From the NCBI RefSeq assembly GCF_000421765.1, contig NZ_ATXQ01000002.1, positions 248,001 through 312,000 on the forward strand: DNA of 64,000 bases. The letters run 5' to 3'. Source of the DNA: Denitrificimonas caeni DSM 24390. Lineage in GTDB: Bacteria; Pseudomonadota; Gammaproteobacteria; Pseudomonadales; Pseudomonadaceae. The notes below the pieces were generated by a model. The model was not told the DNA's origin. It saw nothing but the letters and a program-made list of their open reading frames with translations, and searched no databases. The position numbers and the translations under genes are program-made. How positions within the stretch are numbered: position 1 is the first letter of the stretch; every line of letters begins with the position of its first letter. Positions 47,589 to 63,994 of this stretch are shown in pieces.

Positions 47589-47615
47589 GCTTTCTAGGCT
47601 CTGGCGGACTGCGCT

Positions 47616-47639
47616 TGGGAGCGCGGGCGGCCCGCCCGC
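47616..47639 (-). repeat. GC-rich 24-bp hairpin repeat, copy a
   Basis: Minus-strand match to the consensus GCGGGCGAGCCGCCCGCGCT plus CCCA. The first part is a 7-bp hairpin GCGGGCG/CGCCCGC. Confidence 0.75.
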
Positions 47640-47688
47640 AACAGCTAACAACACCAAGCCGGCTGAAAATATTTAAGTGAGTCGCACC

Positions 47689-47779
47689 GCGCTGCAGCTG
47701 CTTTTCCGTCGATGAACCCATCCAGGGTTCAACTCCGGCGCTACGCCATCCATGGCTTCGCTCATCACAACTACAGCGC
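47689..47779 (-). repeat. Structured repeat copy 1 (type II inner hairpin)
   Basis: On the minus strand a 12-bp outer stem (GCGCTGTAGTTG with CAGCTGCAGCGC, two T-G wobbles) encloses hairpin GCCA-TGGA-TGGC and hairpin GAACCC/GGGTTC on a CCG/CGG base. Member of the eight-copy family described under findings. Confidence 0.85.
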
Positions 47780-48006
47780 AGCACTCTTTGACTATTTGCA
47801 TTGTTTGCAGAACCCTTATCTTGTGCTTGCGAGTACGCTTTCCTAAAAGCTGTCCACATAAATTGTACTGATTTTTCTATTCCGACATGAACAGCACACC
47901 CAAAGCGGGCGAGCCGTCCGCGCTCCCAGGCAGTGCAAACACAAACGATACCTGCGCAAAAAAATAGAGACATGCGCACGTCTAACGAACAACACAAAGA
48001 GTCAAA

Positions 48007-48109
48007 GCGAGCTGTACTGGGTCTGTGACAAGCGTAGCCATGGATGGCGCAGCGCCCGAATCGAGACAGGATGTCTTGCTGAGGGAAAAACAGATTCAGT
48101 ACAGCTCGC
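48007..48109 (+). repeat. Structured repeat copy 2 (type I inner hairpin)
   Basis: 19-bp outer stem GCGAGCTGTACTGGGTCTG with CAGATTCAGTACAGCTCGC, whose only departures are two G-U pairs. It encloses GCCA-TGGA-TGGC and CGAGACA/TGTCTTG (one G-U) on a CCC/GGG base. Confidence 0.88.
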
Positions 48110-48279
48110 ACTGCCAATACGTAAACCGCTTTGAACAATAAGCAAAGTCTGCAGGTGTGTTTATCACACAGCGTGTTGCGGACAAGCCGCTTGCGCTCCC
48201 AGACAGTGCAAACGCAAACGATACCTGCGCAAAACAATAGAGACATGCGCACGCCTAACGAACAGCACAAAAGGTCAAA

Positions 48280-48382
48280 GCGAGCTGTACTGGGTCTGTG
48301 ACAAGCGTAGCCATGGATGGCGCAGCGCCCGAATCGAGACAGGATGTCTTGCTGAGGGAAAAACAGATTCAGTACAGCTCGC
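48280..48382 (+). repeat. Structured repeat copy 3 (type I inner hairpin)
   Basis: Identical in design and arm sequence to copy 2, 273 bp downstream of it in the array. Confidence 0.88.
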
Positions 48383-48578
48383 ACTGCCAATACGTAAACC
48401 GCTTTGAACAATAAGCAAAGTCTGCAGGTCGCTGGCATGGCCAGCTCATACAGGTGTGTTTATCACACAGCGTGTTGCGGACAAGCCGCTCGCGCTCCCA
48501 GGCAGTGCAAACACAAACGATACCTGCGCAAAAAAATAGAGACATGCGCACATCTAACAAACAGCACAAAGGGTCAAA

Positions 48579-48681
48579 GCGAGCTGTGCTGAGTCTGTGA
48601 CAAGCGTAGCCATGGATGGCGCAGCGCCCGAATCGAGACAGAATGTCTCGCTGAGGGAAAAACAGATTCAGTACAGCTCGC
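48579..48681 (+). repeat. Structured repeat copy 4 (type I inner hairpin)
   Basis: Outer stem GCGAGCTGTGCTGAGTCTG with CAGATTCAGTACAGCTCGC. Its two G-U pairs are at other positions than at least one of those in copies 2 and 3. The inner loop reads AGAAT instead of AGGAT. It lies just upstream of the ABC exporter. Confidence 0.88.
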
Positions 48682-48845
48682 ACAGTCGCGTAGCAAGTAA
48701 GCAAAACCACACTGCAGATACACCGAAACAGCTGATAGTGCCCTTATTGAATAGCGGTAAGGTAAACTCAATCCTTGCTGCTCACATCAGCGCCCACGCG
48801 TCTTGTCATACGCCTCGTTGTTTTGTAACCGATAAAGGAACATCT

Positions 48846-50651
48846 GTGCGCCCCTCTTCCGATAGTAACTACCCTGCCCAGCACAAACCCAACTGGAAAA
48901 TTATCGCCGGTCTATGGCCCTATCTGGCCGAATTCCGAGGACGAGTCGTATTAGCAGTGAGCATGCTAATCCTTGCCAAGGTCGCCACAGTCGCCACCCC
49001 AATTGCACTCAAATACATCATCGACTATCTAGACCAAAACCGCGGCGCGGACATGCTGTTATGGATCCCGCTGGTATTGGTTGTGACCTACGGTGCGCTA
49101 CGCTTTGGTAGCACATTGTTCAGTGAGATGCGCGACGCCATCTTTGCCCGCGTCGCCGAACGCGCCATGCGCCGCGTATCTCTACGAGTGTTCCGTCATC
49201 TACACAACCGCGAACTGGCCTTTCATCTGGATCGCAAAACCGGCGGCCTCGCCCGTGACATCGAACGCGGCACCAATGGCATCAGTTTTCTGCTGCGCTT
49301 CACCTTGTTCAATATCGTCCCGACCCTGCTAGAAATCGTCATGGTCACCGGCATTTTATTGGTGGCTTTTAACGTCAGCTATGTCGTGGCCATCTTGGTG
49401 TCGGTGGTCATTTACGTAATCTTTTCCATCCGCGTCACCGAGTGGCGCACCAGCTTTCTGCGCGAAGCCAACAACCGTGACAATGAGTCAAACTCGCGTG
49501 CCATCGACAGCCTACTCAACTACGAAACGGTCAAATACTTCAACAACGAAGCGTATGAGGCCGAGCAGTATGATAAGGGTCTAGAACTGTGGGAGCAGGC
49601 ACGCCTAAAAAACCGCTTATCTATGGCGGCGCTCAACACTGGACAGGCCTTTATTATTGGCGTCTCGCTGATTGTCATTATGGCCATGGCCGTGCGCGAA
49701 GTGGCCAGCGGACAGATGACCTTAGGTGACTTCACCATGGTCAACGCCTACCTGATTCAACTGTTTATTCCGCTGAATGCGCTGGGCTTTGTCTACCGTG
49801 AAATCCGCCAGTCATTGGTGAACGTGGAACGTCTATTCGGCCTGTTAGGCGACAAGCCTGTTATTGAAGATGCCGCTGATGCGAAACCCCTAACGGTGAG
49901 CCAAGGTGAAGTCGCGTTCCGCGATGTGCACTTCAGCTACCGTCCTGATCGAGCCATTTTAAAAGGCGTGAGCTTTACCATCCCCGCAGGCCATACTCTC
50001 GCTGTAGTCGGTGCCAGTGGCGCAGGCAAATCGACTTTAGCGCGACTGTTGTTTCGTTTTTTTGATGTGGACAGCGGCAGCATCAGCATTGATGGTCAAG
50101 ATATCCGTCACATCAGCCAAGATAGTCTGCGCACAGCCATTGGCGTGGTGCCACAAGATACCGTGCTATTCAACGATACCATCTACAACAACTTGGCCTA
50201 CGGCCGTCCGAGTGCCAGCGAAGCGGAAGTTAAGTACGCTGCTCGCCAGGCGCACTTGGATGATTTTGTTAATAGTTTGCCTGATGGTTATGACACTAAA
50301 GTTGGTGAGCGCGGTTTAAAGCTCTCTGGCGGTGAAAAACAGCGAGTTGCCATCGCTCGCGTACTACTGAAAAACCCACCACTGCTGATTCTTGATGAAG
50401 CCACTTCGTCGCTCGACTCCATTTCTGAGCAAGTGATCCTCGACGCACTTAACGAAGTCAGTCGTCAGCGCACCACTCTAGTGATTGCCCACCGTTTATC
50501 CACAATCCGCGATGCAGATACCATTTTGGTTATGGAGCAAGGCGAGATTGTCGAAAGCGGCAGCCACAACGAACTACTAGCCCACGACGGCTACTACGCC
50601 AGACTTTGGCAACAACAGCAGCACAAGGTTGACGAGGTGTCTGCACTCTAA
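48846..50651 (+). CDS. Atm1-type ABC exporter (half transporter)
   Basis: 601-residue half transporter: a six-TM ABC exporter domain (about residues 20-330) and a nucleotide-binding domain with VVGASGAGKSTLARLL (Walker A), LKLSGGEKQRVAIARVLLKN (signature) and LLILDEATSSLDS (Walker B). The segment NYETVKYFNNEAYEAEQYD is typical of the Atm1/ABCB7 group, which moves glutathione-linked or heavy-metal substrates. The GTG at 48846 is preferred because AAGGA is six bases before it and upstream in-frame sequence is repeat-derived. Near-identical direct repeats flank the gene at 48579 and 50833, so it could be gained or lost by recombination. Confidence 0.9.
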   Translation: MRPSSDSNYPAQHKPNWKIIAGLWPYLAEFRGRVVLAVSMLILAKVATVATPIALKYIIDYLDQNRGADMLLWIPLVLVVTYGALRFGSTLFSEMRDAIFARVAERAMRRVSLRVFRHLHNRELAFHLDRKTGGLARDIERGTNGISFLLRFTLFNIVPTLLEIVMVTGILLVAFNVSYVVAILVSVVIYVIFSIRVTEWRTSFLREANNRDNESNSRAIDSLLNYETVKYFNNEAYEAEQYDKGLELWEQARLKNRLSMAALNTGQAFIIGVSLIVIMAMAVREVASGQMTLGDFTMVNAYLIQLFIPLNALGFVYREIRQSLVNVERLFGLLGDKPVIEDAADAKPLTVSQGEVAFRDVHFSYRPDRAILKGVSFTIPAGHTLAVVGASGAGKSTLARLLFRFFDVDSGSISIDGQDIRHISQDSLRTAIGVVPQDTVLFNDTIYNNLAYGRPSASEAEVKYAARQAHLDDFVNSLPDGYDTKVGERGLKLSGGEKQRVAIARVLLKNPPLLILDEATSSLDSISEQVILDALNEVSRQRTTLVIAHRLSTIRDADTILVMEQGEIVESGSHNELLAHDGYYARLWQQQQHKVDEVSAL

Positions 50652-50731
50652 AAAAGACTGACGCAAAACCGACTCACCATGCAATGGTTCAGCGCAAGCG
50701 GAACAGGGCCTGTGACCAGTGCCGCCACAAT

Positions 50732-51053
50732 GCGGGCGAGCCGCCCGCGCTTCCAAACGACACCAAAACTCGCAATACCTGTGTAATAAATAGAGACATG
50801 CACACATCTAACAAACAGCACAAAGGGTCAAAGCGAGCTGTGCTGAGTCTGTGACAAGCGTAGCCATGGATGGCGCAGCGCCCGAATCGAGACAGGATGT
50901 CTCGCTGAGGGGAAAACAGATTCAGTACAGCTCGCACAGCAAATACGTAAACCGCTTTGAACAGTAAGCAAAGTCAGCAGGTTGCTGGCATCACCAGATC
51001 ATAAAAAAACACGAATCCAACAGCGTGTTGCGAGCGAGCCGCCCGCGCTCCCA
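50732..51053 (+). repeat. Composite repeat unit downstream of the ABC exporter
   Basis: 24-mer at 50732-50755, 101 bp to the structured element at 50833, and another 24-mer at 51030-51053. Flanks match the array at 47906-48705 over most of their length, in the same orientation. Confidence 0.85.
50833..50935 (+). repeat. Structured repeat copy 5 (type I inner hairpin)
   Basis: Same arms as copy 4 (19-bp stem, two G-U pairs), inner hairpin CGAGACA-GGA-TGTCTCG on a CCC/GGG base. Its left flank is nearly identical to that of copy 4 for at least 50 bp. Confidence 0.88.
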
Positions 51054-51104
51054 GATAGAAGCCCCCGCATACCCAGATAGAAGTGCCATACTCCTCAGAT
51101 AGAA
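51051..51104 (+). repeat. Short tandem repeat
   Basis: Three copies of CAGATAGAA spaced 22 bp apart (51052, 51074, 51096) just upstream of the atpG 3' end. Confidence 0.6.
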
Positions 51105-51145
51105 ACTCGCGCGCACCAAGATAACGGTGCTAACAGGCCAATGAT

Positions 51146-52015
51146 TTAAGCCAAATGCCCAATCACAATATCCATCAACTCATTGGTGATTTCATCTTGG
51201 CGTACGCTGCTAAGCTCCTGCTGCACAGCCTCTAACTGCTCATCCACCGATTGCTCGGCCTGTTGCATCAAGGCTAAACGCGTCGCATTTTCCGTCACCA
51301 TGGCTTCTGCCGAAGCGCGAAACACACTAGCAAACACATGATTACGAATCAGCGAAGCCAATAAGGCCTCAGCATCCATTGTGTAATCCGGTAGCGAACG
51401 CGAGTTCCAGCGTTGTTGCGGTTGCAGCAACGCTTTATCCAAGGGCAATAAGTTACGGGTCACGGTTTCTTGATAACCATGTTCTGCGCGCTGAGTGAAC
51501 ACCAAGTTCACCGCCAAATGCGCCAGCGACTGACCACTGCCAAGCCGCTCAATGCGCATGACAATATCGCCAGCTAAACGCCCCACACCATCCGCTGAAG
51601 CAGGCGGCATCAGCACCACATCAGGGGTGAAGCCCAGCTCCAAAAGCGCATTGGCCATGCGTGAGCCAATACAGAGAATATGCTGTTTGAGTATCGGTTG
51701 AGCTTGAGTGTACTCAGCCACTTTATTGGCCAGCAGTTCATTGTAATTGCCGCATAGACCATGATCAGAACCAAACACCACCAGCAAACGCAAATTGGGC
51801 TGTACTGCTTCTGTCAGCAGACTGACACCACCTGTGCGATGCACAAAAGCAGCCAAGCCCTGTAAAAGCGTTTGCTGATATAGCTCAATCGACTGCGCTG
51901 CCTGCTCATAAGGCGCAGCGTTAATGGCCGACAAGGTTTTCATGGTATGCACAATGCCGCGAATACTGGCCAGGGTGTCATTTTTACGCGACAGATGCTC
52001 TAAGGTTTGCGCCAT
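51146..52015 (-). CDS. atpG: N-type ATPase gamma subunit
   Basis: 289-residue central-stalk subunit. The N-terminus with RGIVHTMKTLSAINAAPYEQ and the C-terminus with MQQAEQSVDEQLEAVQQELS form the long coiled coil; VVFGSDHGLCGNYNELLA is the conserved central motif. It is diverged from housekeeping F-ATPase gamma, as expected of the N-type. Last gene of the operon, eight bases after atpA; a repeat array follows. Confidence 0.93.
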   Translation of the reverse strand: MAQTLEHLSRKNDTLASIRGIVHTMKTLSAINAAPYEQAAQSIELYQQTLLQGLAAFVHRTGGVSLLTEAVQPNLRLLVVFGSDHGLCGNYNELLANKVAEYTQAQPILKQHILCIGSRMANALLELGFTPDVVLMPPASADGVGRLAGDIVMRIERLGSGQSLAHLAVNLVFTQRAEHGYQETVTRNLLPLDKALLQPQQRWNSRSLPDYTMDAEALLASLIRNHVFASVFRASAEAMVTENATRLALMQQAEQSVDEQLEAVQQELSSVRQDEITNELMDIVIGHLA

Positions 52016-52023
52016 TTACTTGC

Positions 52024-53577
52024 TCACTCCTGTCCTGCATTTGTCGCGCTAACAAGCGTCGCCAAGGCTTCCTGCGCGCAAGCAACAATCAAGGCATGAT
52101 CATCATCTTGCAGTGTTTGATTGTCAGCGATGCGTTGTTCAATCACCGCCAGTTTCTGCTGCGCTGCTTCTCGCACTAAACCCATCGCCTGACTAATCTG
52201 CTGCTCACTGAACTGATCAAACAAGCCTTCCATCGCCGCCACCAATACGGCTAACTGCTCAACTGCCGGCATCGGATCACGCTCAGCTTGGCGCAAGGCT
52301 GTACGTACGGCAGAGCCTCGGGCTAAACGCGCCCGGGTGACATCATCAAGACGCGTGCCAAAACGCGCAAAATCTTCTAACTCTTCAAATTGCGAAAGCG
52401 TCACGCGCAAGTTGCCTGACACGCCACGTAACGTGCGATTCTGCGCCTTACCACCGACTCGCGACACCGACAAACCTAAATCCACTGCGGGGAATTGGTT
52501 TTTACGCACCAACTGTGGGGACAAATAAATTTGCCCATCCGTAATAGAAATAAGGTTCGTTGGAATATAAGCCGAGAGGTTACCCGCTTGGGTTTCCACC
52601 ACGGGTAAAGCAGTAATTGAGCCGCCACCGATCTCTGCGCCAAACTGCCCAGCACGCTCTAAAAGACGCGCATGCACATAGAAAATATCGCCAGGAAAGG
52701 CTTCACGGCCTGGAGGGCGGCGCAGTAATAATGACAACTCACGGTACGCGCGCGCATGATGCGTCATATCATCAAGAATCAGTAAGACATCTTTACCTTG
52801 CGCAGAAAAATATTCAGCCATAGTCATCGCCGCATAAGGTGCGATATACGACAATCCAGGCGACTCTTCATCACCGCTACTCATGACAATACTGCGTTGC
52901 AACATGCCGCCATCTTTTAGTGCACGAATCACCCGTGCCACCGCATCACCACGCTGACCAATCGCGCAATAAATACAAATCACCTCGGTGCGTGCTTGAT
53001 TGAGCATGGTATCAATGGCAATCGAGGTTTTACCGGTTTGACGGTCACCAATAATCAGCTCGCGCTGCCCTAAACCGACAGGAATCGCCGCATCAATGGC
53101 TTTCAGTCCCGTGGCCAACGGCCTAAAGATGGGTGTGCGATTAAGAATGCTCGGTGCTTCAGCCTCAACCGGATGCTCAGCCACTGCAACAATAGGACCT
53201 AAGGTGTCGCGAGGACGCCCGATGGCATCAACAATACGGCCTAGCAGCCTAGGCCCCACCGGCACACTGACCACTTTGCGGGTGCGATAGACCGCCTCAC
53301 CTAAACGAATATGCTCCGATGGCCCAAGCAAAATAACGCCTAAACGTCCGGGCTCCAAGTCGAGCACAACACCTTGCACACCACTGGCAAAAATCAGTAA
53401 CTCATCCGCCAGCGCACGGGCTAACCCCGAGACAATGGCCACACCATCAGCCACTTCAGTCACGCTACCGGTCTCAGTCAAAAGCGCCGTCGGTGCTGGG
53501 CTGTTAACCAAGCTCTCAACCCAGCTCGCAAAGGGATCTGTAGACTCAGCAGCAGAGCTGTTATCAAGCAGACTCAC
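52024..53577 (-). CDS. atpA: N-type ATPase alpha subunit
   Basis: 517-residue non-catalytic nucleotide-binding subunit. Walker [23 protein letters not shown] before it and [20 protein letters not shown] after it are family motifs. The start is set at the GTG at 53577: AAGGAG stands six bases upstream and this just clears the atpF stop. The in-frame ATGs at 53598 and 53622 would overlap atpF. Confidence 0.94.
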
Positions 53578-53587
53578 GGTTATCTCC

Positions 53588-54358
53588 TTAGCGCTCATCG
53601 CTGCGCAGACGCACAGCCGCACTATTAGCGGCCTGCTGCGTCAATAGCTCAGCCAAACCATCCATATAGCTATCGGTGGTCCACGACACTTGCGCACCAC
53701 CGACCTGCATGATTAAACCGGGCGCCTGCTGCGCGTCAGTCGCAAAGCTTAAGCGCACCTGCGGTAGCCACTTCTGCACTTCTTCTTGCAGCAATTGTTG
53801 TGTGCTCACAGGTAAGGCGTCACGGGTGGTCACCTGCGCGTACTGGCTGCCTGCTGAGGCCTGAATCAACTCAGCTGCCATGGGCTGCAACTGCCTACCA
53901 ATATGACGCACGATAGCCTCTTCTAATGTTGCATCGGCCAACTCATGCAATGCTTTGCGAGTTAATTTCAATAACGCCTCGGCGCCTGTTTGCTGCAAAC
54001 GCGCATTAAACACCTGACGCTCATACTCAAGATGCTTGCGCCAATCTTTTTGCTCTTGCTGTAAGGTACTGCGCGCTTGCGCCAACAAGGCATCACGCTT
54101 ACTTTCAGTTGCAGCTAAGGCTTCTTTGAGCAACGCATCGTGCTCAGAAACAATTTTTGCACGCTGCTCGATGTATTGGCTTTCAGCAGCTTTAGCGTGC
54201 TGCTGCGCTTGTTCAGCATCGGCCATACGTCGGGCAATTTCTGCTTCACGGGCATCAATACCATCTAAAATCGGACGATAAAGAAAACGTTTCAGCAGCC
54301 ACAGCAACACTAAAAAGTTAGCAATTTGTGCCAGAACGGTTATCCAATCAATCGACAT
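53588..54358 (-). CDS. atpF: N-type ATPase b subunit, extended
   Basis: 256-residue peripheral-stalk subunit with one N-terminal TM helix ([20 protein letters not shown]) then a long charged coiled coil (about residues 30-150). It is roughly 100 residues longer than the E. coli b subunit. The operon has no separate delta (atpH) gene, so the extra C-terminal domain (about 160-256) may take the delta role; this is inference from length and context. Spacing to atpE is six bases. Confidence 0.9.
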
Positions 54359-54364
54359 AAGTCT

Positions 54365-54643
54365 TTACGCTCCCGCTGCTGCCTGCATGGCATCCCAAAA
54401 CGGGTTAGCAAAAATCAGAATCATCGCCACCACAAAGCAATAAATCGCCGTGGACTCAATCATCGCCAAGCTGACAAACAAGGTGCGCGATAAGGTTGGT
54501 GCAGCATCAGGCTGCTGAGCAATCGCCGCAATCGCCGCAGCAGCAGCACGGCCTTCACCTAAAGCGGGGCCAAGTGAGCCAATCGCGATAGTAAAACCCG
54601 CGGTAAAAATAGAAATGGCGGCAATCAACGCAAGGTCAGTCAT
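54365..54643 (-). CDS. atpE: N-type ATPase c subunit
   Basis: 92-residue rotor-ring hairpin. Helix 2 has the ion-binding Glu63 followed by Ser64, Thr65 and Tyr68 (MIESTAIY), the pattern of Na+-binding c subunits. Helix 1 has a second carboxylate, Glu30 in GPALGEGRA, a feature of N-type enzymes. Ion choice cannot be settled from this, since the B. pseudomallei N-type ring has been reported to be proton-specific. Its start overlaps the end of atpB by eight bases. Confidence 0.95.
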   Translation of the reverse strand: MTDLALIAAISIFTAGFTIAIGSLGPALGEGRAAAAAIAAIAQQPDAAPTLSRTLFVSLAMIESTAIYCFVVAMILIFANPFWDAMQAAAGA

Positions 54644-55337
54644 GTTTTTTATCCTTTTCAGAGGTTTTGACAGGTATTTCTGCCATCGCAGAAGAAATAT
54701 ATACAGTAGCTAAAATGGCAAAGATATAGGCTTGAATAAAGCCAGTCAGCAGGCCGAGCATGTCCATCACCACGGGAAAAAAGAATGGCGCAATGCTCAG
54801 TAAAATCGCGGCAATCACCGCGCCGCTCATCACATTGCCATACAAGCGAATGGCCAGCGACACACCCCGTGAAAACTCGCCGATGATATTAAACGGCAAC
54901 ATAATCGGTGAGGGCTCAATAAACTTGTGTAGATATTGACGCACGCCACCATTGACGATACCGAACAAAGGAATCGCCACCAGTACCGATAACGTCAGCG
55001 CTACCGTGGTTGACAAGGATGAGGTCGGCGGCGCAAAGCCAGGAATCACTGTGAGCAGATTGGATACGGCTATAAACAGAAATAAAGTTCCAGCAAAATA
55101 CAACACATGACGTGCGCCGCTGCGGGTGACTTCTTCAATCTGTCCTTGGATCATCGTGACAATCAATTCAAGCGCGCTGCGCCAGCGCCCAGGAGCTTTA
55201 TCCGCACGTAGATTACGGGTCACCAGCATCGAAATGCCGACCAACAACACCATCACAATCCAAGTATTAACAATCGTTGCACTCACTGGCCAACTGCCGA
55301 GGGTAAAAACGATGGTCTGATCGGGACTCAGTTGCAT
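54636..55337 (-). CDS. atpB: N-type ATPase a subunit
   Basis: 233-residue membrane stator subunit with five to six TM helices. The essential arginine lies in SLAIRLYGNVMSG near residue 162; GFIQAYIFAILATVYIS forms the final helix. It works with the c ring to pass ions. Between atpR and atpE in the order characteristic of N-type operons. Confidence 0.94.
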   Translation of the reverse strand: MQLSPDQTIVFTLGSWPVSATIVNTWIVMVLLVGISMLVTRNLRADKAPGRWRSALELIVTMIQGQIEEVTRSGARHVLYFAGTLFLFIAVSNLLTVIPGFAPPTSSLSTTVALTLSVLVAIPLFGIVNGGVRQYLHKFIEPSPIMLPFNIIGEFSRGVSLAIRLYGNVMSGAVIAAILLSIAPFFFPVVMDMLGLLTGFIQAYIFAILATVYISSAMAEIPVKTSEKDKKHD

Positions 55338-55652
55338 TTATACGCCCTCCTGTTTAACCAAATGCGTTGCTGGACTGATCTTTGCTCGCAACACAGCCAA
55401 AACACGCACCAACAAAAATACCAGCATATAACCGACCAAAGACCATAAGCTGTTGGTGAAGCGGATTAACACAAACGCTATCGCGAGCAACAGCGTCATC
55501 CGCACAAAAAAGCTCAGCAGCAATACACCACCTGGGCTAGTTGAAGCTAACGCCAAACGCATGCCCCAATTTAAACCGTAAAAAAACAGCACACTGATCG
55601 GCAAGCCAATGACGGCACCCAAGAGTATTGCTGTTGTATTTATCTCTATCAC
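55338..55652 (-). CDS. atpR: N-type ATPase accessory membrane protein AtpR
   Basis: 104-residue membrane protein with three predicted TM helices (about 8-28, 40-62, 66-88). It takes the place of AtpR, a small protein found only in N-type operons and thought to help c-ring assembly. An arginine or charged residue occurs within the membrane region (FFVRMTLLLAIAFVLIRF). The stop directly abuts atpB. Identified mainly by order, size and topology. Confidence 0.88.
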   Translation of the reverse strand: MIEINTTAILLGAVIGLPISVLFFYGLNWGMRLALASTSPGGVLLLSFFVRMTLLLAIAFVLIRFTNSLWSLVGYMLVFLLVRVLAVLRAKISPATHLVKQEGV

Positions 55653-55691
55653 GCACCCTCTCCTTAAAACCTGCAGCGCTTAACCACGCGG

Positions 55692-55972
55692 TTATTTATC
55701 GCGGGTTTTATCAATCCAACTCCAAGCCACCATCGCCCCGACCACCACACCACCGAGAATCAACGCAATGGGCCAAGAAAAACTTTGCGGCGCGACGCGG
55801 TTGAGCCACATACCTAAAAAAGCACCTGCAACAGTTGGCATCGCCACCGACCAGCCAATCACGCCAAATACGCCCAAACCATTTAACGGACTGTACTTTG
55901 GCTCGTTACGCGTTTGCTGCATGCGCTCAGCACGACGACGGATCGCTTTGGCCGACGCATCTTCTGATTCTG

Positions 55973-55976
<4 letters not shown>
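55692..55976 (-). CDS. atpQ: N-type ATPase AtpQ (AtpI/gene 1-like)
   Basis: 94-residue protein with a charged N-terminal tail and two TM helices (GVIGWSVAMPTVAGAFLGMW and WPIALILGGVVVGAMVAW). It is of the AtpI/AtpQ class, helping ring assembly or Mg/Ca handling. Start overlaps the atpC stop by four bases. Confidence 0.88.
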
Positions 55977-57870
<1,894 letters not shown>

Positions 57871-57886
57871 CTACTAACGTTAAGGC

Positions 57887-58588
57887 TTATTCAAAATCTG
57901 CAGCAGTCACTAAACGCACATCGTTCCACTCAATCGCTCGGCTACGCCAGTGCTCTTCAATGGATTGCGCAAAGTCTGCGCGCACCAATTTGGCCCGTGC
58001 TTCACACCACTGCTCTGAATCATGACGCATCACAATGCCTTCGGGTGTGCCTTGACGGTACTGGCTGCTAACAGTGTTGAGCAAGGTTTTTAATTCATCC
58101 AGCGTAGTCTGTCCTTGATACAACGTGGGAACCACGGCTAAACCCATTTTGGCGGCCAAGGCATTACGTCGCTCACAGCTCCAAAACTTTTGCTCGGTGC
58201 GATCGTAGACATCAAACACCACAAACCAGTCGGGCAAATTATCGTAATCCAGCGAGTGGCGCGCCGCGCACCATTCACCAAATAATATCCAATCACTTTG
58301 TAAATTATCACACAACGCATAACGATGTTGCGCCAGCCAAGAATTGAGACGCGAGAACTGCCCAGCAAACGGCTCTAATAAATACTGTCCACGGTTCTGT
58401 GCGCGCAACTCACCATTGGCACGCATGGAGATACCCAGGTTGGCACCATCGAGCTTTTCTTCGATGCGTAACGGCTGCGCTAAAATAGCGTCAACCTCAG
58501 CTGGACTAAGAACCTTGTCATCACGCGGCATGCCCTCACCGAGCCAGTCAATGTGCGGGGTATGGGGGAAGCGAAAAAAATCAGACAT
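57887..58588 (-). CDS. RNA ligase (Rnl2-like nucleotidyltransferase)
   Basis: 233-residue ATP-dependent RNA ligase-type protein. The adenylated lysine is K45 in EEKLDGANLGI (KxDG motif I); motif III is WILFGEWCAARHSL, IIIa FVVFDVYD, motif IV EGIVMRHD and motif V RAKLVRADF. All core motifs are intact, so it is probably active. No C-terminal specificity domain is present, as in minimal ligases. It begins on the base after the PIN gene stop, pointing to one transcript with the PIN and ATPase genes. A role in resealing RNA cut by the PIN protein is inferred from context only. Confidence 0.88.
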   Translation of the reverse strand: MSDFFRFPHTPHIDWLGEGMPRDDKVLSPAEVDAILAQPLRIEEKLDGANLGISMRANGELRAQNRGQYLLEPFAGQFSRLNSWLAQHRYALCDNLQSDWILFGEWCAARHSLDYDNLPDWFVVFDVYDRTEQKFWSCERRNALAAKMGLAVVPTLYQGQTTLDELKTLLNTVSSQYRQGTPEGIVMRHDSEQWCEARAKLVRADFAQSIEEHWRSRAIEWNDVRLVTAADFE

Positions 58589-59137
58589 CTACTTATTCTC
58601 CGGCATGGCAGGCGCTGGCACATGGCGCTGCCTTGGAAACTTAATTTTATGAAAGCGTTGCGCATCCGCAGCACACAAAAACTCAACCTTAACGCCCTGC
58701 TCAGCTAAGGCTGGCCACCAATCAATCCACTTACAATCTGCCGCCTGCAAAATGGTTGGTTTGTCAGGATGAACATTGGCGACAGTTGGAAAAATACGAT
58801 CAGGCGGATCAAACTCATGCTGTAGTGCTTGATCTGGAAACTCAGCATAAAAATCAATGTCGGTTAAGGTCACACTGACCATCTCAACCTGAGCAGGATT
58901 ACCCATATTGCGCAGCAGCCATTTTAAAAACACATCACCGACACCACGCGGCGGATTGATGCAAGTTTTGTGTTGATATTCGCCCAAAATAATAAAGCTG
59001 TCATCAATCACCACCACGCCGGTATTTTGGATGGCTTGCAAGCGCTCAATGCAACTGGCCACGCACTCAGTCGAAACGTCGGCATGCTGCTGATTTGCCA
59101 CCAGCAACACGTTGGTATCAATCACTACTTTAAGCAT
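58589..59137 (-). CDS. PIN-domain protein, probable ribonuclease
   Basis: 182-residue protein with a PIN-like fold. Acidic landmarks in order are D7 in VVIDTNVLLVANQQ, the stretch VVVIDDSFIILGEY with a conserved Glu, and the late Asp in LQAADCKWIDWW. PIN proteins are metal-dependent RNases, frequent in toxin-antitoxin and defence loci. No antitoxin gene is adjacent. The ATG at 59137 gives MLKVVIDTNVLL, the standard PIN start. It lies ten bases after the ATPase gene and abuts the ligase. Target RNA is unknown. Confidence 0.78.
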   Translation of the reverse strand: MLKVVIDTNVLLVANQQHADVSTECVASCIERLQAIQNTGVVVIDDSFIILGEYQHKTCINPPRGVGDVFLKWLLRNMGNPAQVEMVSVTLTDIDFYAEFPDQALQHEFDPPDRIFPTVANVHPDKPTILQAADCKWIDWWPALAEQGVKVEFLCAADAQRFHKIKFPRQRHVPAPAMPENK

Positions 59138-59147
59138 GCGCAAAGCC

Positions 59148-60518
59148 CTAGTTATTCTGCTGACGCTTACGCTGCACCGCGGCCATGGCTCTGGCGGCAA
59201 TATCAGTCATCTCATCACCAAATAAATTCTCTGGCCAATTGGCTATTTCACCGTAGGTATCGATCGCCAAGCTTTCAATTTGCGCTTGAGTGCCATCACG
59301 ACTGCAAAAATACAAAGCCACATCCTGATGACTGATCACACCTTCAGCGATACGTCTTTGTAACCTATTTAAAAAGTGCTCGGAGTGACTCTCGACAATG
59401 ATTTGTTGATTACGCGCTTGCCCGCCCTCTTTTGCTTGCACAGCAGCAATTAACATGTCAGCCAATCCAGCCTGCACCTGTGAGTGCAAATGAATTTCTG
59501 GTTGTTCAAGCCAGACTGTTGCATGTGGCGGTGCATAAAACGCCTGCACAATCACCGGCAACAATTGCGACACGCCAAAGCCTAGATCAGCCAAATTCAC
59601 CTCAGCCGCATCGGCATGGCTTTTTAGCTGCACCTGATAGTCATTGACTGTTTCTGCTAGAGGACGAATCGAAAAGTCAGTGGCCACACCCATCTGCTGC
59701 AACCAATAGGCAATGCCCTGCTGAAAATCCAACTCGGGTTGATCGACGGCAAACTGTAACTTGCGCTGCTGAGCATTAGCAGCCAGCACGGCAGTGATCG
59801 CCGCCTCGCCAGCACGCCCCACACTTGCAGGTGTTTCACCACGCCAAGCATAACGACGCTGCGGCCCTGCACGTAAAGCTGCAAGGGCTTGAAAGTCAGC
59901 CAGAATACGCTCGGTCTGCGCAGCCAGCGTGGTAAGAAAAGCGGCGGCTTGGCCTTGTGTTGCCGGCAAGCAGTAAAAGTGCTCAGGACGGGCTGCAGCG
60001 GCCAGTGCCAGTGAGTATTCAAGGGCGTGCGGTTGTTTAATACTCACCTGCAACTGAGCCTTGCTATCACTGCAATAGATGACACTGAACTGCTCAATGC
60101 CGTCCTGGAAACCCTTGTAGCAGATCGATTGCAGCTGTGGCTGCTGCGCTTGATCGGCGATGACACTAACACTTAAACACAACTCATCAATCGACAGGCT
60201 ATGCGGCGTTGCTACATCGGGCAAAACTAAAGTTTCAGACAAACGCCAGCGCAGCTCAAACTGCAAAGGCTCAGTCAATTGGCCGCCATGTAGGTTCTGC
60301 GCAAAAGAGCCTAAATCAATCAGGCTCTGACCATCACCAAAATTCAACGAGGGTTGCGCAGCAGACGAGCCGGCACTTTGTTTCAGCGCCAGCAGCAACT
60401 GCCCTAAGCTGCTTTTACCGGCACTGTTCTCACCGAAAAAAACTGTCAGCGGCGCTAACTTTATCGACCCAGTATCCTTCCATGCCTTAAAGTTCTTGAT
60501 CCGCCAAGAGGTTATCAT
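59148..60518 (-). CDS. DUF3696-type AAA/ABC-like ATPase
   Basis: 456-residue SMC/ABC-like ATPase. N-terminal IKNFKAWKDTG and Walker A FFGENSAGKSSLGQL; Walker B VWLEQPEIHLHSQVQ; then QIIVESHSEHFLNRLQRRIA with a C-terminal DUF3696-type tail (GEIANWPENLFGDEMTDIA). Such OLD-like ATPases without a TOPRIM domain are often found with separate nuclease effectors in phage-defence loci. Here the next gene is a PIN protein. The first gene of the cassette, 38 bp after the antiporter gene on the same strand. Confidence 0.88.
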   Translation of the reverse strand: MITSWRIKNFKAWKDTGSIKLAPLTVFFGENSAGKSSLGQLLLALKQSAGSSAAQPSLNFGDGQSLIDLGSFAQNLHGGQLTEPLQFELRWRLSETLVLPDVATPHSLSIDELCLSVSVIADQAQQPQLQSICYKGFQDGIEQFSVIYCSDSKAQLQVSIKQPHALEYSLALAAAARPEHFYCLPATQGQAAAFLTTLAAQTERILADFQALAALRAGPQRRYAWRGETPASVGRAGEAAITAVLAANAQQRKLQFAVDQPELDFQQGIAYWLQQMGVATDFSIRPLAETVNDYQVQLKSHADAAEVNLADLGFGVSQLLPVIVQAFYAPPHATVWLEQPEIHLHSQVQAGLADMLIAAVQAKEGGQARNQQIIVESHSEHFLNRLQRRIAEGVISHQDVALYFCSRDGTQAQIESLAIDTYGEIANWPENLFGDEMTDIAARAMAAVQRKRQQNN

Positions 60519-60556
60519 CAGTACAGTGCCCCCTTAACAATTGAGTAGTGACCTCA

Positions 60557-61876
60557 TCACAATAACATTGCTGCCGCCCAACCAAAGGCCAATAACGGCA
60601 AATTATAGTGAATAAAGGTGGGCACTACTGTATCCCAAATATGACTGTGCTGGCCGTCCATATTCAAACCCGAAGTTGGCCCGAGAGTTGAATCTGAGGC
60701 AGGCGAGCCGGCATCACCGAGCGCGCCAGCGGTACCGACAATACTAACAATAGCCAGCGGACTGAAACCCAACTGCAAAGCCAAGGGTACAAAAATCGCA
60801 GCAATAATAGGTACAGTAGAAAACGATGAACCAATGCCCATAGTGACCAGCAAACCCACCAGCAGCATCAACAACGCGCCCATCGCTTTACTGTCGCCAA
60901 TCACTGACACCGATGAGTCAACTAAGGTTTGAATTTGTCCTGTTTCGCGCATCACTTCAGCAAAGCCAGACGCCGCAATCATAATGAAGCCAATCATGGC
61001 CATCATCTTCATGCCTTCGGTGAACAAGTCATCGGCCTCTTTCCAGCGCACCACACCAGACACGGAGAACACCACAAAACCCACCAGCGCACCCATGATC
61101 ATTGAGTCCAGCCACAGCTGCACGACAAAGGCGGCAACCACAGCAGCACCCGCGGCGATTAAGCTTTTCGGGCTGTAGCTGCTGCTAGCCGAACCGACTT
61201 CACCTTCTTCAACCAACTGATACACACGTTTTTTACGATAGGTAAACAAGATAGCAACCAACAAGCCAAACAGCATGCCGGCAGCAGGAATCATCATGGC
61301 TTGCATCACGCTTAAACCGCTGACATCAACGCCTCCTTTGGCCACGTTAGCCAGCAGCACCTCTTTAAGGAAAATCCCACCAAAACCTACGGGCAAAAAC
61401 ATATAGGGGGTGATCAAGCCGAAGGTCAGCACACAGGCGATAAGGCGACGATCCAACTGTAAGCGCCCCATCACATAGAGTAATGGCGGCACTAACAATG
61501 GAATAAAGGCAATATGGATTGGCAAGATATTCTGCGAAGAAACCGCAGCGCCTAGCAGCACCGCAATCAATAACCACTTGACCATCTCAGAGCCTTTGCC
61601 TTCTTGTCGACCCACCATATTGAGGATCTTTCCAGCTAAAGCATTGGCTACGCCAGATTTACTGATCGCTACAGCAAACGCACCGAGTAAGGCGTAGGAC
61701 AACGCGACCGTAGCGCCCCCCCCAAGGCCTTTATTAAAAGCAGATAAGGTGCTGTCGATACCCAGCCCACCCATTAAACCACCGACCACTGCGCCAATAA
61801 TCAGCGACACGACAACGTGTACTCGGAGCAAACTGAGCACCAGCATTAATGCTACTGCGACAACAACCGCGTTCAT
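60557..61876 (-). CDS. Na+/H+ antiporter family (NhaC-like) transporter
   Basis: 439-residue integral membrane protein with about 11-12 hydrophobic helices. Repeated motifs such as ALLGAFAVAISKSGVANALA and VGTAGALGDAGSPASDSTLG resemble the Na+/H+ antiporter (NhaC/YuiF-like) family; relatives are sometimes named amino-acid transporters, so the substrate is uncertain. The start at 61876 is preferred because a GGGGG stretch lies just upstream. Placement beside an N-type ATPase suggests a shared role in ion balance. Divergent from pnuC. Confidence 0.85.
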   Translation of the reverse strand: MNAVVVAVALMLVLSLLRVHVVVSLIIGAVVGGLMGGLGIDSTLSAFNKGLGGGATVALSYALLGAFAVAISKSGVANALAGKILNMVGRQEGKGSEMVKWLLIAVLLGAAVSSQNILPIHIAFIPLLVPPLLYVMGRLQLDRRLIACVLTFGLITPYMFLPVGFGGIFLKEVLLANVAKGGVDVSGLSVMQAMMIPAAGMLFGLLVAILFTYRKKRVYQLVEEGEVGSASSSYSPKSLIAAGAAVVAAFVVQLWLDSMIMGALVGFVVFSVSGVVRWKEADDLFTEGMKMMAMIGFIMIAASGFAEVMRETGQIQTLVDSSVSVIGDSKAMGALLMLLVGLLVTMGIGSSFSTVPIIAAIFVPLALQLGFSPLAIVSIVGTAGALGDAGSPASDSTLGPTSGLNMDGQHSHIWDTVVPTFIHYNLPLLAFGWAAAMLL

Positions 61877-62098
61877 AACAACCCCCAACCGCTTTGAAAA
61901 TGATGTCAACACACGGGCTTGCGCATTGATTTTAAGCTGCGCAGTTTACACTGCTAAAACTAAGAATAAACCGCCGATTTGCCCTGCCGTACGTATCCGT
62001 CTTGATTTCAAGGGTTAACAGCGACTGACTTTTTGTTTATCTCGGCAAACAGCCTGCTAGTATGCGCAGCATTATTCAGCGATTGAATTGGAACATTT

Positions 62099-62671
62099 AT
62101 GCTCTCGATGACTTGGATCGAGCTGATCGCCGCAAGTTTAGGCGCACTCTCCGTCTACTTAATGACTCAGCAAAAGCCTGCCGCCTGGCCGATTGGCTTG
62201 CTGATGGTGCTGCTGTACATCTGGATTTTTTACGACGCGCGTTTGTATTCAGAAATGCTTTTGCAAATCATTTATGTGGTATTGCAGATTTACGGCTGGT
62301 GGCAATGGCTGCGCGGCGGCGAGCAACATCAAGGGCGAGCGGTGAGCCGTTTAAACAGTTTAGGCATCAGTCAAGGTTTGCTCGTGGGTGCCAGCATCAC
62401 CCTTGCTTTGGGTTTTGCCATGAGCCAATACACCGATGCCAACTTGCCTTGGCTGGATGCAGCGCTGACTGGTTTTAGCTTGGTGGCACAATATTGGATG
62501 GCGCAGAAACGCCTACAATGTTGGTTACTGTGGATTGTGCTGGATATTATTTATGTCGGAATGTTTATCACCGCAGAACTCTATCTCACCGCAATCCTCT
62601 ATGTCGCATTCACTGCGCTGGCGGTGTATGGCTGGCTTGAGTGGCGCACAAGTGAGGCGCAAACAACATGA
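62099..62671 (+). CDS. pnuC: Nicotinamide riboside transporter PnuC
   Basis: 190-residue PnuC-family facilitator with seven predicted TM helices. Motifs are LLQIIYVVLQIYGWWQWLRGG and CWLLWIVLDIIYVGMFITAE, whose Trp and Asp/Asn-rich helices line the substrate path. PnuC moves nicotinamide riboside by diffusion, driven by phosphorylation inside the cell. The next gene encodes that type of kinase and overlaps by four bases, which supports this substrate over thiamine. Confidence 0.92.
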   Translation: MLSMTWIELIAASLGALSVYLMTQQKPAAWPIGLLMVLLYIWIFYDARLYSEMLLQIIYVVLQIYGWWQWLRGGEQHQGRAVSRLNSLGISQGLLVGASITLALGFAMSQYTDANLPWLDAALTGFSLVAQYWMAQKRLQCWLLWIVLDIIYVGMFITAELYLTAILYVAFTALAVYGWLEWRTSEAQTT

Positions 62672-63243
62672 AAGTTGTGGTATTAAGCGGCCCTGAGTCG
62701 GCAGGAAAAAGCACGCTGTGCCAAGCTTTAGCCGAGCGATTTAATGCTCCGTTGGTTAGCGAATATGTCAGAGAGTTTATTGAACAGACGCAGCGTGACA
62801 CCGGCTATGCAGATATCAGTCTTATTGCCGAACAACAGCTTGCACGTGAACTGGCAGCGCGCGCCCAACAACCAGATTTACTGCTGCTCGACACACATTT
62901 ATTGAGCAATAAGCTGTGGAGTGAAACCTTATTTGGACGCAGTCCAGACTGGATTGAAAGCGCACTCAAGGCCCAGCATTACGATTTAATTGGTTTGCTC
63001 AGCCCTGACGCAATGCCTTGGCAGGCGGATGGCCAACGTTGTCAGCCGCTATTAGCTGAGCGCCAACAATTTCATCAACATTTAGCGCATTGGTTGCAGC
63101 AGCACCAGCAGCCGGTATTGCATTTAGAGGGCTCTTGGCAAGCACGTTATCAAGAACTTGAGCGTGCCATTGAACAGCTGTTAGACAACCGTTTAGAGTT
63201 ATCCCCTTATCATCAGCCGAACATTCAGAGGATTAAGCCATGA
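62668..63243 (+). CDS. NadR-type ribosylnicotinamide kinase
   Basis: 191-residue AAA_28/NadR-like kinase. Walker A is SGPESAGKSTLCQAL near the N-terminus, with VSEYVREFIEQTQRDTGY next and the Walker B-like LLLLDTHLLSNKLWSE. It corresponds to only the kinase part of E. coli NadR; the regulator HTH and NMN adenylyltransferase domains are absent. It would trap imported nicotinamide riboside as NMN. Coupled to pnuC by an ATGA overlap, and overlapping the next gene likewise. Confidence 0.9.
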   Translation: MKVVVLSGPESAGKSTLCQALAERFNAPLVSEYVREFIEQTQRDTGYADISLIAEQQLARELAARAQQPDLLLLDTHLLSNKLWSETLFGRSPDWIESALKAQHYDLIGLLSPDAMPWQADGQRCQPLLAERQQFHQHLAHWLQQHQQPVLHLEGSWQARYQELERAIEQLLDNRLELSPYHQPNIQRIKP

Positions 63244-63458
63244 CCAGCACCCACGCCCACGACCCCTTACATGGCGTTACTTTAGCTGTGGTTCTCAATC
63301 GTTTAGTTGCGCATTATGGCTGGGAAGAGTTGGCCGAATTGATACCGGTGAACTGCTTCAAAACCGACCCATCAGAAAAATCTTCGCTGAAGTTCTTACG
63401 CAAAACCGAGTGGGCCCGTGCGAAAGTTGAGGCGTTGTATATTTCGACATTTGCTTAA
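63240..63458 (+). CDS. VF530-family (DUF2132) small DNA-binding protein
   Basis: 72-residue protein with the family pattern DPLHGVTLAVVLNRLVAHYG and WEELAELIPVNCF, then KSSLKFLRKTEWARAKVEAL. Members are small helical proteins proposed to bind DNA; the role is unknown. It overlaps the kinase gene by four bases and closes the pnuC operon. Confidence 0.92.
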   Translation: MTSTHAHDPLHGVTLAVVLNRLVAHYGWEELAELIPVNCFKTDPSEKSSLKFLRKTEWARAKVEALYISTFA

Positions 63459-63506
63459 TCAGCTAGCGACAAAGAGCAGATCGCAAACAACGCCGATGAT
63501 CAACGA

Positions 63507-63607
63507 GTGCTTCGGGGTAAGTGTGACGAGCGTAGCCATGGATGGCGCAGCGCCGGAGTTGAACCCCGGATGGGTTCATCGACGGAAAAACACTTATCCC
63601 GAAGTGC
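63507..63607 (+). repeat. Structured repeat copy 6 (type II inner hairpin)
   Basis: 17-bp outer stem GTGCTTCGGGGTAAGTG with CACTTATCCCGAAGTGC, three G-U/U-G wobbles and no true mismatch. It encloses GCCA-TGGA-TGGC and GAACCC-CGGA-TGGGTTC on a CCG/CGG base. Confidence 0.88.
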
Positions 63608-63667
63608 GATATGCACAGTATGTATGCATAACGAAACGTAAAGTATTGAGCATTTTATGCGCACGCC

Positions 63668-63766
63668 GTACCGCGCTAGTATCGTTTTTCCCTCAACGAG
63701 ACTTCCTGTCTCGATTCGGGCGCTTCGCCATCCATGGCGTCGCTTGCCACGAAACTAGCGCGGTAC
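63668..63766 (-). repeat. Structured repeat copy 7 (type I inner hairpin)
   Basis: On the minus strand GTACCGCGCTAGTTTCG pairs with CGATACTAGCGCGGTAC (one U-U mismatch). HP1 is CGCCA-TGGA-TGGCG and the inner hairpin GAGAC/GTCTC on a CCC/GGG base. Confidence 0.85.
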
Positions 63767-63893
63767 TCATTGACCTAGGATGTTGTTTGCAAGTCTGTAG
63801 CACGGCACTAGAAGATAGCCGACGCACACACATCTTTGCTGCTGCTTTAGTGATTCATACTGCAATCGTACAAACAACAAAAATGATCAACGA

Positions 63894-63994
63894 GTGCTTC
63901 GGGATAAGTGTGACAAGCGTAGCCATGGATGGCGCAGCGCCGGAGTTGAACCCCGGATGGGTTCATCGACGGAAAAACACTTATCCCGAAGTAC
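63894..63994 (+). repeat. Structured repeat copy 8 (type II inner hairpin)
   Basis: 17-bp stem GTGCTTCGGGATAAGTG with CACTTATCCCGAAGTAC, a single G-U pair. Close sister of copy 6, sharing the left flank ATGATCAACGA. Confidence 0.88.

What the first reader, a model, noticed from the sequence alone, without database searches (positions are those of the whole stretch)
47689..63994. Eight-copy family of about 100-bp elements with a compensated three-stem structure
Copies at 47689(-), 48007, 48280, 48579, 50833, 63507, 63668(-) and 63894 share the core AGCG-NN-GCCATGGATGGC-GNAGCGCC and a terminal AAAA(A)C or AAAAG. Three outer-stem sequences are completely different between subfamilies (GCGAGCTG.., GTGCTTCGGG.., GTACCGCG.., plus GCGCTG..) yet all pair over 12-19 bp. 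Nearly every departure is a G-U or U-G pair when read in core orientation, and none is an A-C pair; one U-U occurs in copy 7. The second inner hairpin exists in two versions (CGAGACA/TGTCTCG or GAACCC/GGGTTC) whose basal pairs covary CCC/GGG to CCG/CGG beside a constant GA/GA that could form tandem sheared G-A pairs. Wobbles in one strand only favour a selected RNA fold over a simple DNA palindrome. I do not recognise the family.
Basis: seen in the sequence. Interest (0 to 1): 0.82.

Follow-up and report, generated by a model that had tools for sequence, protein, structure and literature searches.

The report
Dispersed RNA-like repeats with paired GGA hairpins
A bacterial genome carries over a hundred copies of a small folded element whose two hairpin tips look like docking sites for the regulator CsrA, arranged in orderly back-to-back pairs between genes and resembling two families that were described separately before.

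Summary
The window's eight copies belong to a family of at least 117 in this 3.02-Mb genome, and all 12 held genomes of its genus carry it. Copies fold as a three-way junction: an 18-bp outer stem P1 of variable sequence, plus two hairpins P2 and P3 with GGA loops. Covariation is strong (30 of 34 pairs with two-sided changes; 96.2% of cells paired) and strand-specific (299 G-U against 59 A-C). Copies are intergenic, mostly between convergent genes. Neighbours in opposite orientation are of the two different P3 types (134 of 135 typed pairs in two samples), as in BIMEs. R1-matching elements occur in a few Oscillospiraceae. The nearest known families are Rfam TwoAYGGAY (hits below threshold; all 7 in the window's genome fall on these elements) and the Yersinia repeat YPAL/RU-2 (83% core identity to a sibling element). 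My best reading: a selected RNA element carrying a pair of CsrA/RsmA-type GGA hairpins, amplified into BIME-like arrays. RNA-level structure is well supported. CsrA binding is inferred from loop sequence and co-occurrence. Transcription and the mobilising enzyme are unknown; a RAYT domain is absent from half the genus. New variant of a known kind.

The parts
47676..47792 (-). Element, type B (P3 base CCG/CGG), first of array <B A> A> A>
   Evidence: R1 112.6 bits; 28 WC + 6 GU of 34 pairs
48001..48115 (+). Element, type A (CCC/GGG)
   Evidence: R1 117.2 bits; identical to 48274-48388
48274..48388 (+). Element, type A, tandem copy
   Evidence: R1 117.2 bits
48573..48687 (+). Element, type A; P3 loop reads GAA instead of GGA. 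A mechanical ORF (GTG at 48597) overlaps it; I read that start as over-extended
   Evidence: R1 119.5 bits; ORF
50827..50941 (+). Element, type A, downstream of the ABC transporter ORF
   Evidence: R1 119.0 bits
63499..63615 (+). Element, type B, first of array B> <A B>
   Evidence: R1 120.0 bits
63660..63774 (-). Element, type A; contains the one U-U pair
   Evidence: R1 123.4 bits
63886..64000 (+). Element, type B, cut by the window end (runs to 64002)
   Evidence: R1 121.8 bits
47793..48000 (.). Head-to-head spacer (208 bp) between divergent B and A; each 5' flank shows AACAACA-like and GTCAA-like blocks
63616..63659 (.). Tail-to-tail junction of 44 bp, the commonest size (7 of 20 in this genome)
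63775..63885 (.). Head-to-head spacer (111 bp) between divergent A and B

Best explanation
Each copy specifies a structured RNA of about 115-150 nt: outer stem P1 (18 bp), junction, P2 with a CANGGAUG loop, P3 with tandem GA/GA and a GGA loop, A-rich junction. The two loops present GGA motifs 26-28 nt apart, the form recognised by the dimeric regulator CsrA/RsmA. When the DNA is transcribed (from its own upstream region, or by read-through from neighbouring genes or rRNA operons), the RNA would bind CsrA, acting as a dispersed decoy or as a CsrA-loaded RNA end. The element has been amplified as a divergent pair <B A> and its tandem copies, giving BIME-like arrays between genes. Shown: fold, covariation, strand asymmetry, GGA conservation, array rule, convergent placement, turnover between species, distribution. 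Inferred: transcription, CsrA binding, decoy function, mobility mechanism.
For: Covariation: 30 of 34 pairs have two-sided changes, 96.2% of cells paired, score 0.614 against 0.248 shuffled (0 of 500 shuffles reach it) and at most 0.134 slid. G-U 299 against A-C 59 in the window's genome, 303 against 28 in four congeners. 23 of 23 exact-core copies fold lower in core orientation than in reverse complement. GGA: P2 111 of 116, P3 type A 57 of 61, P3 type B 42 of 45, both 106 of 116, while the base before GGA in P2 is at most 37% one letter. P2 has CANGGAUG in 102 of 116 distinct copies, against 3 such octamers elsewhere in both strands of the window. GGA-to-GGA distance is 26-28 nt in 107 of 107 copies having both. 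CsrA (PF02599) is in 12 of 12 genus genomes and in 8 of 8 other genomes tested that have R1 or core-pattern hits. In Oscillospiraceae it is in 3 of 3 element-bearing genomes and 5 of 20 without a match; these 20 are the ones listed of 148 without a match (P 0.03). Rfam TwoAYGGAY, already proposed to bind CsrA (PMC4333381, passages), hits 7 places in the window's genome at E<=1, all 7 of them R1 copies on the same strand. All 3 of the 5S rRNA genes found in the 5 contig-end pieces scanned are followed by an array; E. coli sRNAs at rrn ends bind CsrA in vitro, and mutating three GGA (two of them in loops) lowers this (PMC8144298, abstract and section 24).
Against: No transcript or binding data. 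No clear sigma-70-like promoter in the conserved 5' flank consensus (read by eye). At 26 of 68 gene ends a terminator-like hairpin lies between gene and array, by a lenient scan, so read-through may be limited. In A/B arrays one type is antisense to any given transcript. Type A P3 is CAGGAUG in 44 of 65, one nucleotide short of CANGGAUG. Counting the two Pal332 bins once, the CsrA association falls to P 0.09. CsrA is common in Gammaproteobacteria (general knowledge), so its presence there is weak evidence. In Oscillospiraceae G067 the minimum-energy folds keep P1, but of 6 copies printed only one shows separate P2- and P3-like hairpins, and one (L350) folds slightly lower in reverse complement. 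Copies are absent or decayed in close relatives at several loci, so no single one of those is essential.
Confidence: 0.5

Rival explanations
1. A BIME/REPIN-like selfish DNA repeat. The folded form that is selected is single-stranded DNA recognised by a transposase; CsrA has no part in it.
For: Dispersed high copy number, arrays with A/B strand alternation, convergent intergenic placement as recalled for E. coli REPs, presence/absence differences between related species. G-T wobble on one strand could also fit folded ssDNA.
Against: The Y1 transposase domain PF01797 is missing from 6 of 12 genus genomes, including G005, which is a single contig and has at least 65 copies. No target-site duplication is visible in the five loci aligned. 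GGA loops recur in Oscillospiraceae; the GNA/GNA internal loop of P2 recurs in G057, and P1 is AT-rich and of another sequence, which a recently spread transposon would not predict. The window family was not found on plasmids, phages or viral contigs with the few queries used.
Confidence: 0.3
2. An RNA element acting on neighbouring transcripts only by its structure: a bidirectional 3'-end stabiliser or terminator between convergent genes, independent of CsrA.
For: 27 of 43 clusters with both neighbours called lie between convergent genes, against 10 of 119 element-free adjacent pairs. 42 of 68 gene ends facing an array show no terminator-like hairpin of their own. Palindromic repeats are reported as mRNA stability determinants in yersiniae and neisseriae (PMC2267715, passages).
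Against: A simple stem would suffice; it does not explain near-invariant GGA in two loops, the fixed 26-28 nt spacing or the alternating types. At 26 of 68 gene ends a terminator-like hairpin already precedes the array.
Confidence: 0.15
3. No function: relics of past duplication with chance palindromes.
For: Individual copies are missing or degraded between close species.
Against: Covariation far beyond shuffles and slid controls, G-U/A-C asymmetry, and R1 matches with two hairpins in another phylum.
Confidence: 0.03

Closest known systems
TwoAYGGAY RNA (Rfam RF01731, clan CL00106)
   Same: Long outer stem enclosing two hairpins with A-N-GGA-U loops. Published taxa are human gut, gamma-Proteobacteria and Clostridiales (PMC2864571 table, passage), like those seen here. 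Tandem GA reported (PMC4333381, passage).
   Different: Hits at E<=1 score 21-34 bits against a gathering score of 43. Junction strands differ in the printed alignments. Dispersed arrays of two alternating types are not mentioned in the passages I saw.
YPAL / RU-2 palindromic repeat of Yersinia (168 bp)
   Same: Dispersed intergenic repeat with internal inverted repeats. Folding the published sequence puts GGA in the loops of two hairpins inside a long stem, and a sibling element in this genus (L261) shares 83% identity over the 71-nt core, E 2e-15.
   Different: The window's family itself gave no significant nucleotide match to RU-2 (best of the lines shown E 0.03; that output was cut). RU-2 is reported with target duplications of 3-26 bp (PMC2229807 section 11); none was seen here.
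BIME / REP / REPIN
   Same: Clustered intergenic repeats in alternating orientation with type tied to strand.
   Different: Unit is a 115-nt three-way junction, not a 20-40 bp palindrome (size from PMC3733652 abstract start). No PF01797 match in half of the genus.
CsrA/RsmA-binding RNAs (CsrB, RsmY/Z, E. coli RrA/B/F)
   Same: GGA in hairpin loops, CsrA gene present; RrA/B/F also lie behind rRNA operons (PMC8144298 abstract), as do three arrays here.
   Different: Two GGA hairpins per unit but over a hundred units per genome; binding, expression and GacA control untested.

Membership tests
TwoAYGGAY (RF01731) | Covariance-model score at or above the gathering score of 43 | tested here: not met
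   0 of 12 genus genomes over cut-off; best 34.0 bits, at a YPAL-core sibling. Window copies: none at E<=1 in the all-family scan of 47600-51100; two (50826-50942, 63652-63782) at 22-23 bits in the single-family search
TwoAYGGAY (RF01731) | Two hairpins with AYGGAY-like loops inside a long outer stem | tested here: met
   P2 CANGGAUG in 102 of 116 (any N, so wider than Y), P3 GGA in 57 of 61 (A) and 42 of 45 (B); alignment
YPAL/RU-2 | Core sequence similarity | tested here: not met
   No significant match for the window family in the lines shown; met only by sibling L261, 83% over 71 nt; that second-hairpin pattern also lies in the window's genome at L238:2029-2054
YPAL/RU-2 | Target-site duplication on insertion | tested here: inconclusive
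   Five loci aligned with relatives; intergenic DNA too diverged to see a junction
REP/BIME/REPIN | Alternating orientation with two types | tested here: met
   55 of 55 typed opposite neighbours A-B, 2 more untyped; 79 of 80 in stretches of four congeners, 2 more untyped
REP/BIME/REPIN | Associated RAYT (Y1 transposase) | tested here: not met
   PF01797 in 6 of 12 genus genomes, none in G005; adjacency to arrays was not examined in the 6
REP/BIME/REPIN | 20-40 bp palindrome tagged GTAG or CGTC at one end | tested here: not met
   Unit is about 115 nt with three stems; the end tag was not separately tested
CsrA-sequestering sRNA | GGA in loops of several hairpins | tested here: met
   both GGA in 106 of 116
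CsrA-sequestering sRNA | Binding to CsrA and expression as RNA | not testable with these tools
   needs EMSA/CLIP and RNA-seq

The most novel reading that the evidence does not exclude
A cross-phylum superfamily of self-multiplying genomic repeats (this family, TwoAYGGAY, YPAL) whose unit is a double CsrA-binding hairpin, so that repeat copy number and arrangement set the cell's CsrA-titrating capacity, with arrays behind rRNA operons coupling it to growth.
Probability: 0.25. Interest if true: 0.85.

Novelty: new variant of a known kind. Interest (0 to 1): 0.62.

Why it matters
It ties together three things that the papers I saw treat separately: a repeat described as mobile DNA (YPAL), a candidate RNA of unknown function (TwoAYGGAY), and CsrA-type GGA hairpins. 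If CsrA binds these copies, a global regulator's free level would depend on repeat copy number, and this can be tested directly with short synthetic RNAs. The A/B strand rule in a 115-nt three-way junction is also an unusual example for the question of how BIME-like arrays form without a known transposase.

Tried and rejected
Rfam at gathering threshold on the window: no hit. Rfam at E<=1 on 47600-51100: two sub-threshold MIR533 miRNA-precursor matches on the reverse strand, rejected as palindrome artefacts.

RAYT/Y1 transposase as present mobiliser: weakened because PF01797 is absent in 6 of 12 genomes, including G005. Of the Planctomycetes loci searched, ten gave R1 matches of 21.7-26.7 bits; those folded share the P2 hairpin in a different overall fold; not counted as members. 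The core scan also returned single loci titled Rhizobiales, Rhodovulum, Bryobacterales and Verrucomicrobiaceae, with no R1 match. Integron attC was considered because of the variable palindromic arms, but its box motifs, recalled, were not seen by eye; no formal test. Promoter: consensus of 105 type A and 93 type B 5' flanks shows conserved blocks but no clear -35/-10 by eye. Insertion site: five loci aligned with one or two relatives each gave absence or decay but no clean junction. Mobile DNA: one element query against plasmids and phages, a second query against plasmids, and the core pattern against viral contigs gave no match; the YPAL-like second hairpin does occur in two viral contigs. 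Literature: a search for the core letters returned 190 papers, the 20 listed unrelated by title; RsmA with REP, REPIN/three-way junction, genus names and CsrA with dispersed repeats listed no paper that by title or abstract start describes this element. The library holds only open-licence papers, so absence there is weak.

Counts that go against the reading: one A-A opposite pair (L295, second member 27.7 bits); 59 and 28 A-C cells; P 0.09 when the two Pal332 bins count once; unlike minimum-energy folds in G067; 40 of 57 relatives, including 21 of 24 genomes of the same family outside the genus, have no R1 match at E<=0.01. Dropped rows: L006 left out of A1 as identical to L005; 7 of 50 clusters have no call for one or both neighbours. 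117 is a lower bound, since 150 of 1265 candidates were scored. Searches fetched 29 stretches chosen from the listed matches only. My ORF caller is crude.
Full report
WHAT IS THERE. The eight copies in the window are real. The window is G000:C2:248001-312000 of a 3.02-Mb genome. A covariance model R1 from 22 exact-core copies finds 117 copies in the genome, a lower bound since 150 of 1265 candidates were scored. All 12 genomes of the genus held have matches, 12 to at least 65 copies each, 65 being the scoring cap; of 57 genomes searched in all, 17 match, the five outside the genus weakly. Named relatives found by scanning the core are gamma-proteobacterial MAGs (the isolate codes suggest anaerobic digesters, my inference), one of them titled Pseudomonadaceae. 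Contig LFRZ01000033.1 of DTU037 has the same length as G003:C85. I take the family to be Pseudomonadaceae and the genus to be near Thiopseudomonas/Denitrificimonas; the genus name is recalled, not tested.

ANATOMY. P1 is 18 bp (all 18 pairs standard in 55 of 117 copies, 16 or more in 111). A 5-nt junction follows, then P2 = GC, an internal loop GNA/GNA (shorter in many type B copies), GCCA/UGGC and loop NGGA; usually one G; P3 = CCC or CCG, GA/GA, a variable helix and a GGA loop; and an A-rich strand back to P1. Structure statistics on 116 distinct copies: 96.2% of cells paired against 77.0% shuffled; 30 of 34 pairs with two-sided changes; covariation 0.614 against 0.248 shuffled and at most 0.134 for slid partners. 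R1 was used to align these copies, which leans counts towards the structure, but the original 22-copy MAFFT alignment already shows 24 of 34 two-sided pairs. G-U against A-C: 299:59 in this genome, 303:28 in 129 distinct copies from four congeners. In the window alone 20:0. Related copies are not independent, so these ratios are not tests in themselves.

LOOPS. GGA is kept in P2 in 111 of 116 copies, in P3 in 57 of 61 type A and 42 of 45 type B, in both in 106 of 116, although the base before it in P2 is free. P2 reads CANGGAUG in 102 of 116; the same octamer occurs 3 times elsewhere in both strands of the window. The two GGA are 26-28 nt apart in all 107 copies having both. A(N)GGA is the stated CsrA/RsmA primary motif (PMC4066749, one passage), and loop GGA the canonical CsrA site (PMC8144298 section 24).

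ARRAYS. The 117 copies form 50 clusters (13 single). Of 57 neighbours in opposite orientation 55 are typed and all are A with B; of 10 in the same orientation all are like with like. In 29 stretches of four congeners 79 of 80 typed opposite neighbours are A-B, and 21 of 21 typed same-orientation neighbours are alike; three more pairs hold an untyped member. Tandem duplication means that these pairs are not all independent. The unit is a divergent pair with A and B pointing outward; tail-to-tail gaps cluster at 44 bp, head-to-head gaps range 99-223 bp in this genome. By my ORF caller no ORF lies within a cluster; in the mechanical list one ORF start at 48597 overlaps an element, which I read as over-extended. 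27 of 43 clusters with both neighbours lie between convergent genes, 13 codirectional, 3 divergent, against 10 of 119 convergent among element-free pairs, P 6e-12 (7 of 59 for gaps of 60 bp or more, P 1e-7). Of the five contig-end pieces scanned, three contain a 5S rRNA gene; all three genes are followed by an array, with type A in sense (positions and types). In 18 stretches of G005 no rRNA was found.

TURNOVER. Nine loci were sought in two related species, G002 and G008 (they share 91% and 90% identity with G000 at the ABC transporter gene). Both flanks could be followed at some loci only. G008 shows no element at four loci (pieces L311, L317, L319, L327) and four copies at a fifth; G002 shows decayed copies at three (14.4, 27.4, 47.9 bits) and sound copies at three (alignments). 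No target duplication could be read. Plasmid, phage and viral collections gave no match to the window family with the few queries used.

RELATIVES. (a) Oscillospiraceae MAGs: the 12 Pal332 copies folded show the same junction with another, AT-rich P1 in most and GGA in most loops, but P3 closes without the GA/GA mismatch. In 150 genomes of that family 2 have matches, 21 and 9 copies; the second genome, G067, keeps the P2 and P3 loop sequences and a possible GA/GA by eye, but only one of its six copies printed shows both hairpins in the minimum-energy fold, and one folds slightly lower in reverse complement. (b) Other genomes of the same family and order have weaker matches; by eye, of 13 loci folded, most show a long P1 (up to about 33 bp) around GGA hairpins, though some minimum-energy folds merge the two. 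(c) Rfam TwoAYGGAY scores 21-34 bits, below 43, in 11 of 12 genus genomes. All 7 such hits in G000 coincide with R1 copies on the same strand; the best hit in G005 is instead a sibling element (L261) in a stretch without R1 hits (L286). (d) That sibling's core is 83% identical over 71 nt to the published YPAL/RU-2 repeat, E 2e-15 (sequence from a PMC2759123 table, passage), and the same second-hairpin pattern lies about 200 bp from an R1 copy in the window's own genome. So TwoAYGGAY, YPAL and this family appear to be one architectural class; sequence homology is shown only for L261 and YPAL.

CsrA. PF02599 is in 12 of 12 genus genomes, 8 of 8 other genomes with R1 or core-pattern matches, and in Oscillospiraceae in 3 of 3 element-bearing genomes against 5 of 20 of those listed without a match, P 0.03, or 0.09 if the two Pal332 bins count once. 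TwoAYGGAY had been proposed to bind CsrA from its loops, with validation called work in progress in the passage seen (PMC4333381).

MECHANISM. Best supported: an RNA with two CsrA-type hairpins, amplified as divergent pairs. RNA-level structure I put near 0.8; CsrA binding near 0.5. Steps not shown: transcription, binding, titration, and how copies move. The chief rival is a transposase-recognised ssDNA fold (0.3), weakened by the missing PF01797 in half the genus and by loop conservation across phyla. Both may be partly right: one concerns spread, the other what the unit does.

CHANGES ON CHECKING. The first text said that GA/GA recurs in Oscillospiraceae in general and that the fold is the same there; the calls bear this out only in part (above).

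Noticed in passing
window 47616-47639(-), 47905, 48477, 50732, 51030 (+): A second REP-like palindrome, GCGGGCGAGCCGCCCGCGCTCCCA, 5 copies with up to 3 mismatches, none in 100 shuffles; copies sit between the elements of the array at 47676-48687 and beside the one at 50827.
   Followed up: no
L238:2029-2054 (-) (G000:C6), L261:1571-1596, L286:3175-3200 (same G005 place), L068, L085, L089, L092: Elements with a YPAL/RU-2-like second hairpin (AGCCTACA-NGGA-NGTA) in this genus and in G033.
   Followed up: partly
L261:1540-1638 (-): Rfam Ysr224 (Yersinia sRNA, RF02770) matches the reverse strand of the YPAL-like sibling below its gathering score (32.1 of 70 bits): Ysr224 may be annotated opposite a YPAL-type element.
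   Followed up: no
L250, L251, L253: Arrays directly downstream of 5S rRNA in three contig-end pieces, type A in rrn sense each time.
   Followed up: partly
L106, L107, L108, L112, L128, L129 and others: Planctomycetes MAGs carry AGCG-NA-GCCATGGATGGC-GNA-GCGCC hairpins inside another large palindromic fold, several with further GGA.
   Followed up: no
L360:6229-6254(-), L361:2556-2581(-): Two viral-collection contigs hold the YPAL-like second hairpin.
   Followed up: no
window 51146-57834 (-): A run of ORFs that reads like an ATP synthase operon of unusual gene order (named from the translations by recall, no search).
   Followed up: no
L252:121-326 (-), L280:6628-6993 (+): Cobalamin riboswitch about 2 kb from an array in G000, and CrcZ a few hundred bp from an array in G005.
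   Followed up: no
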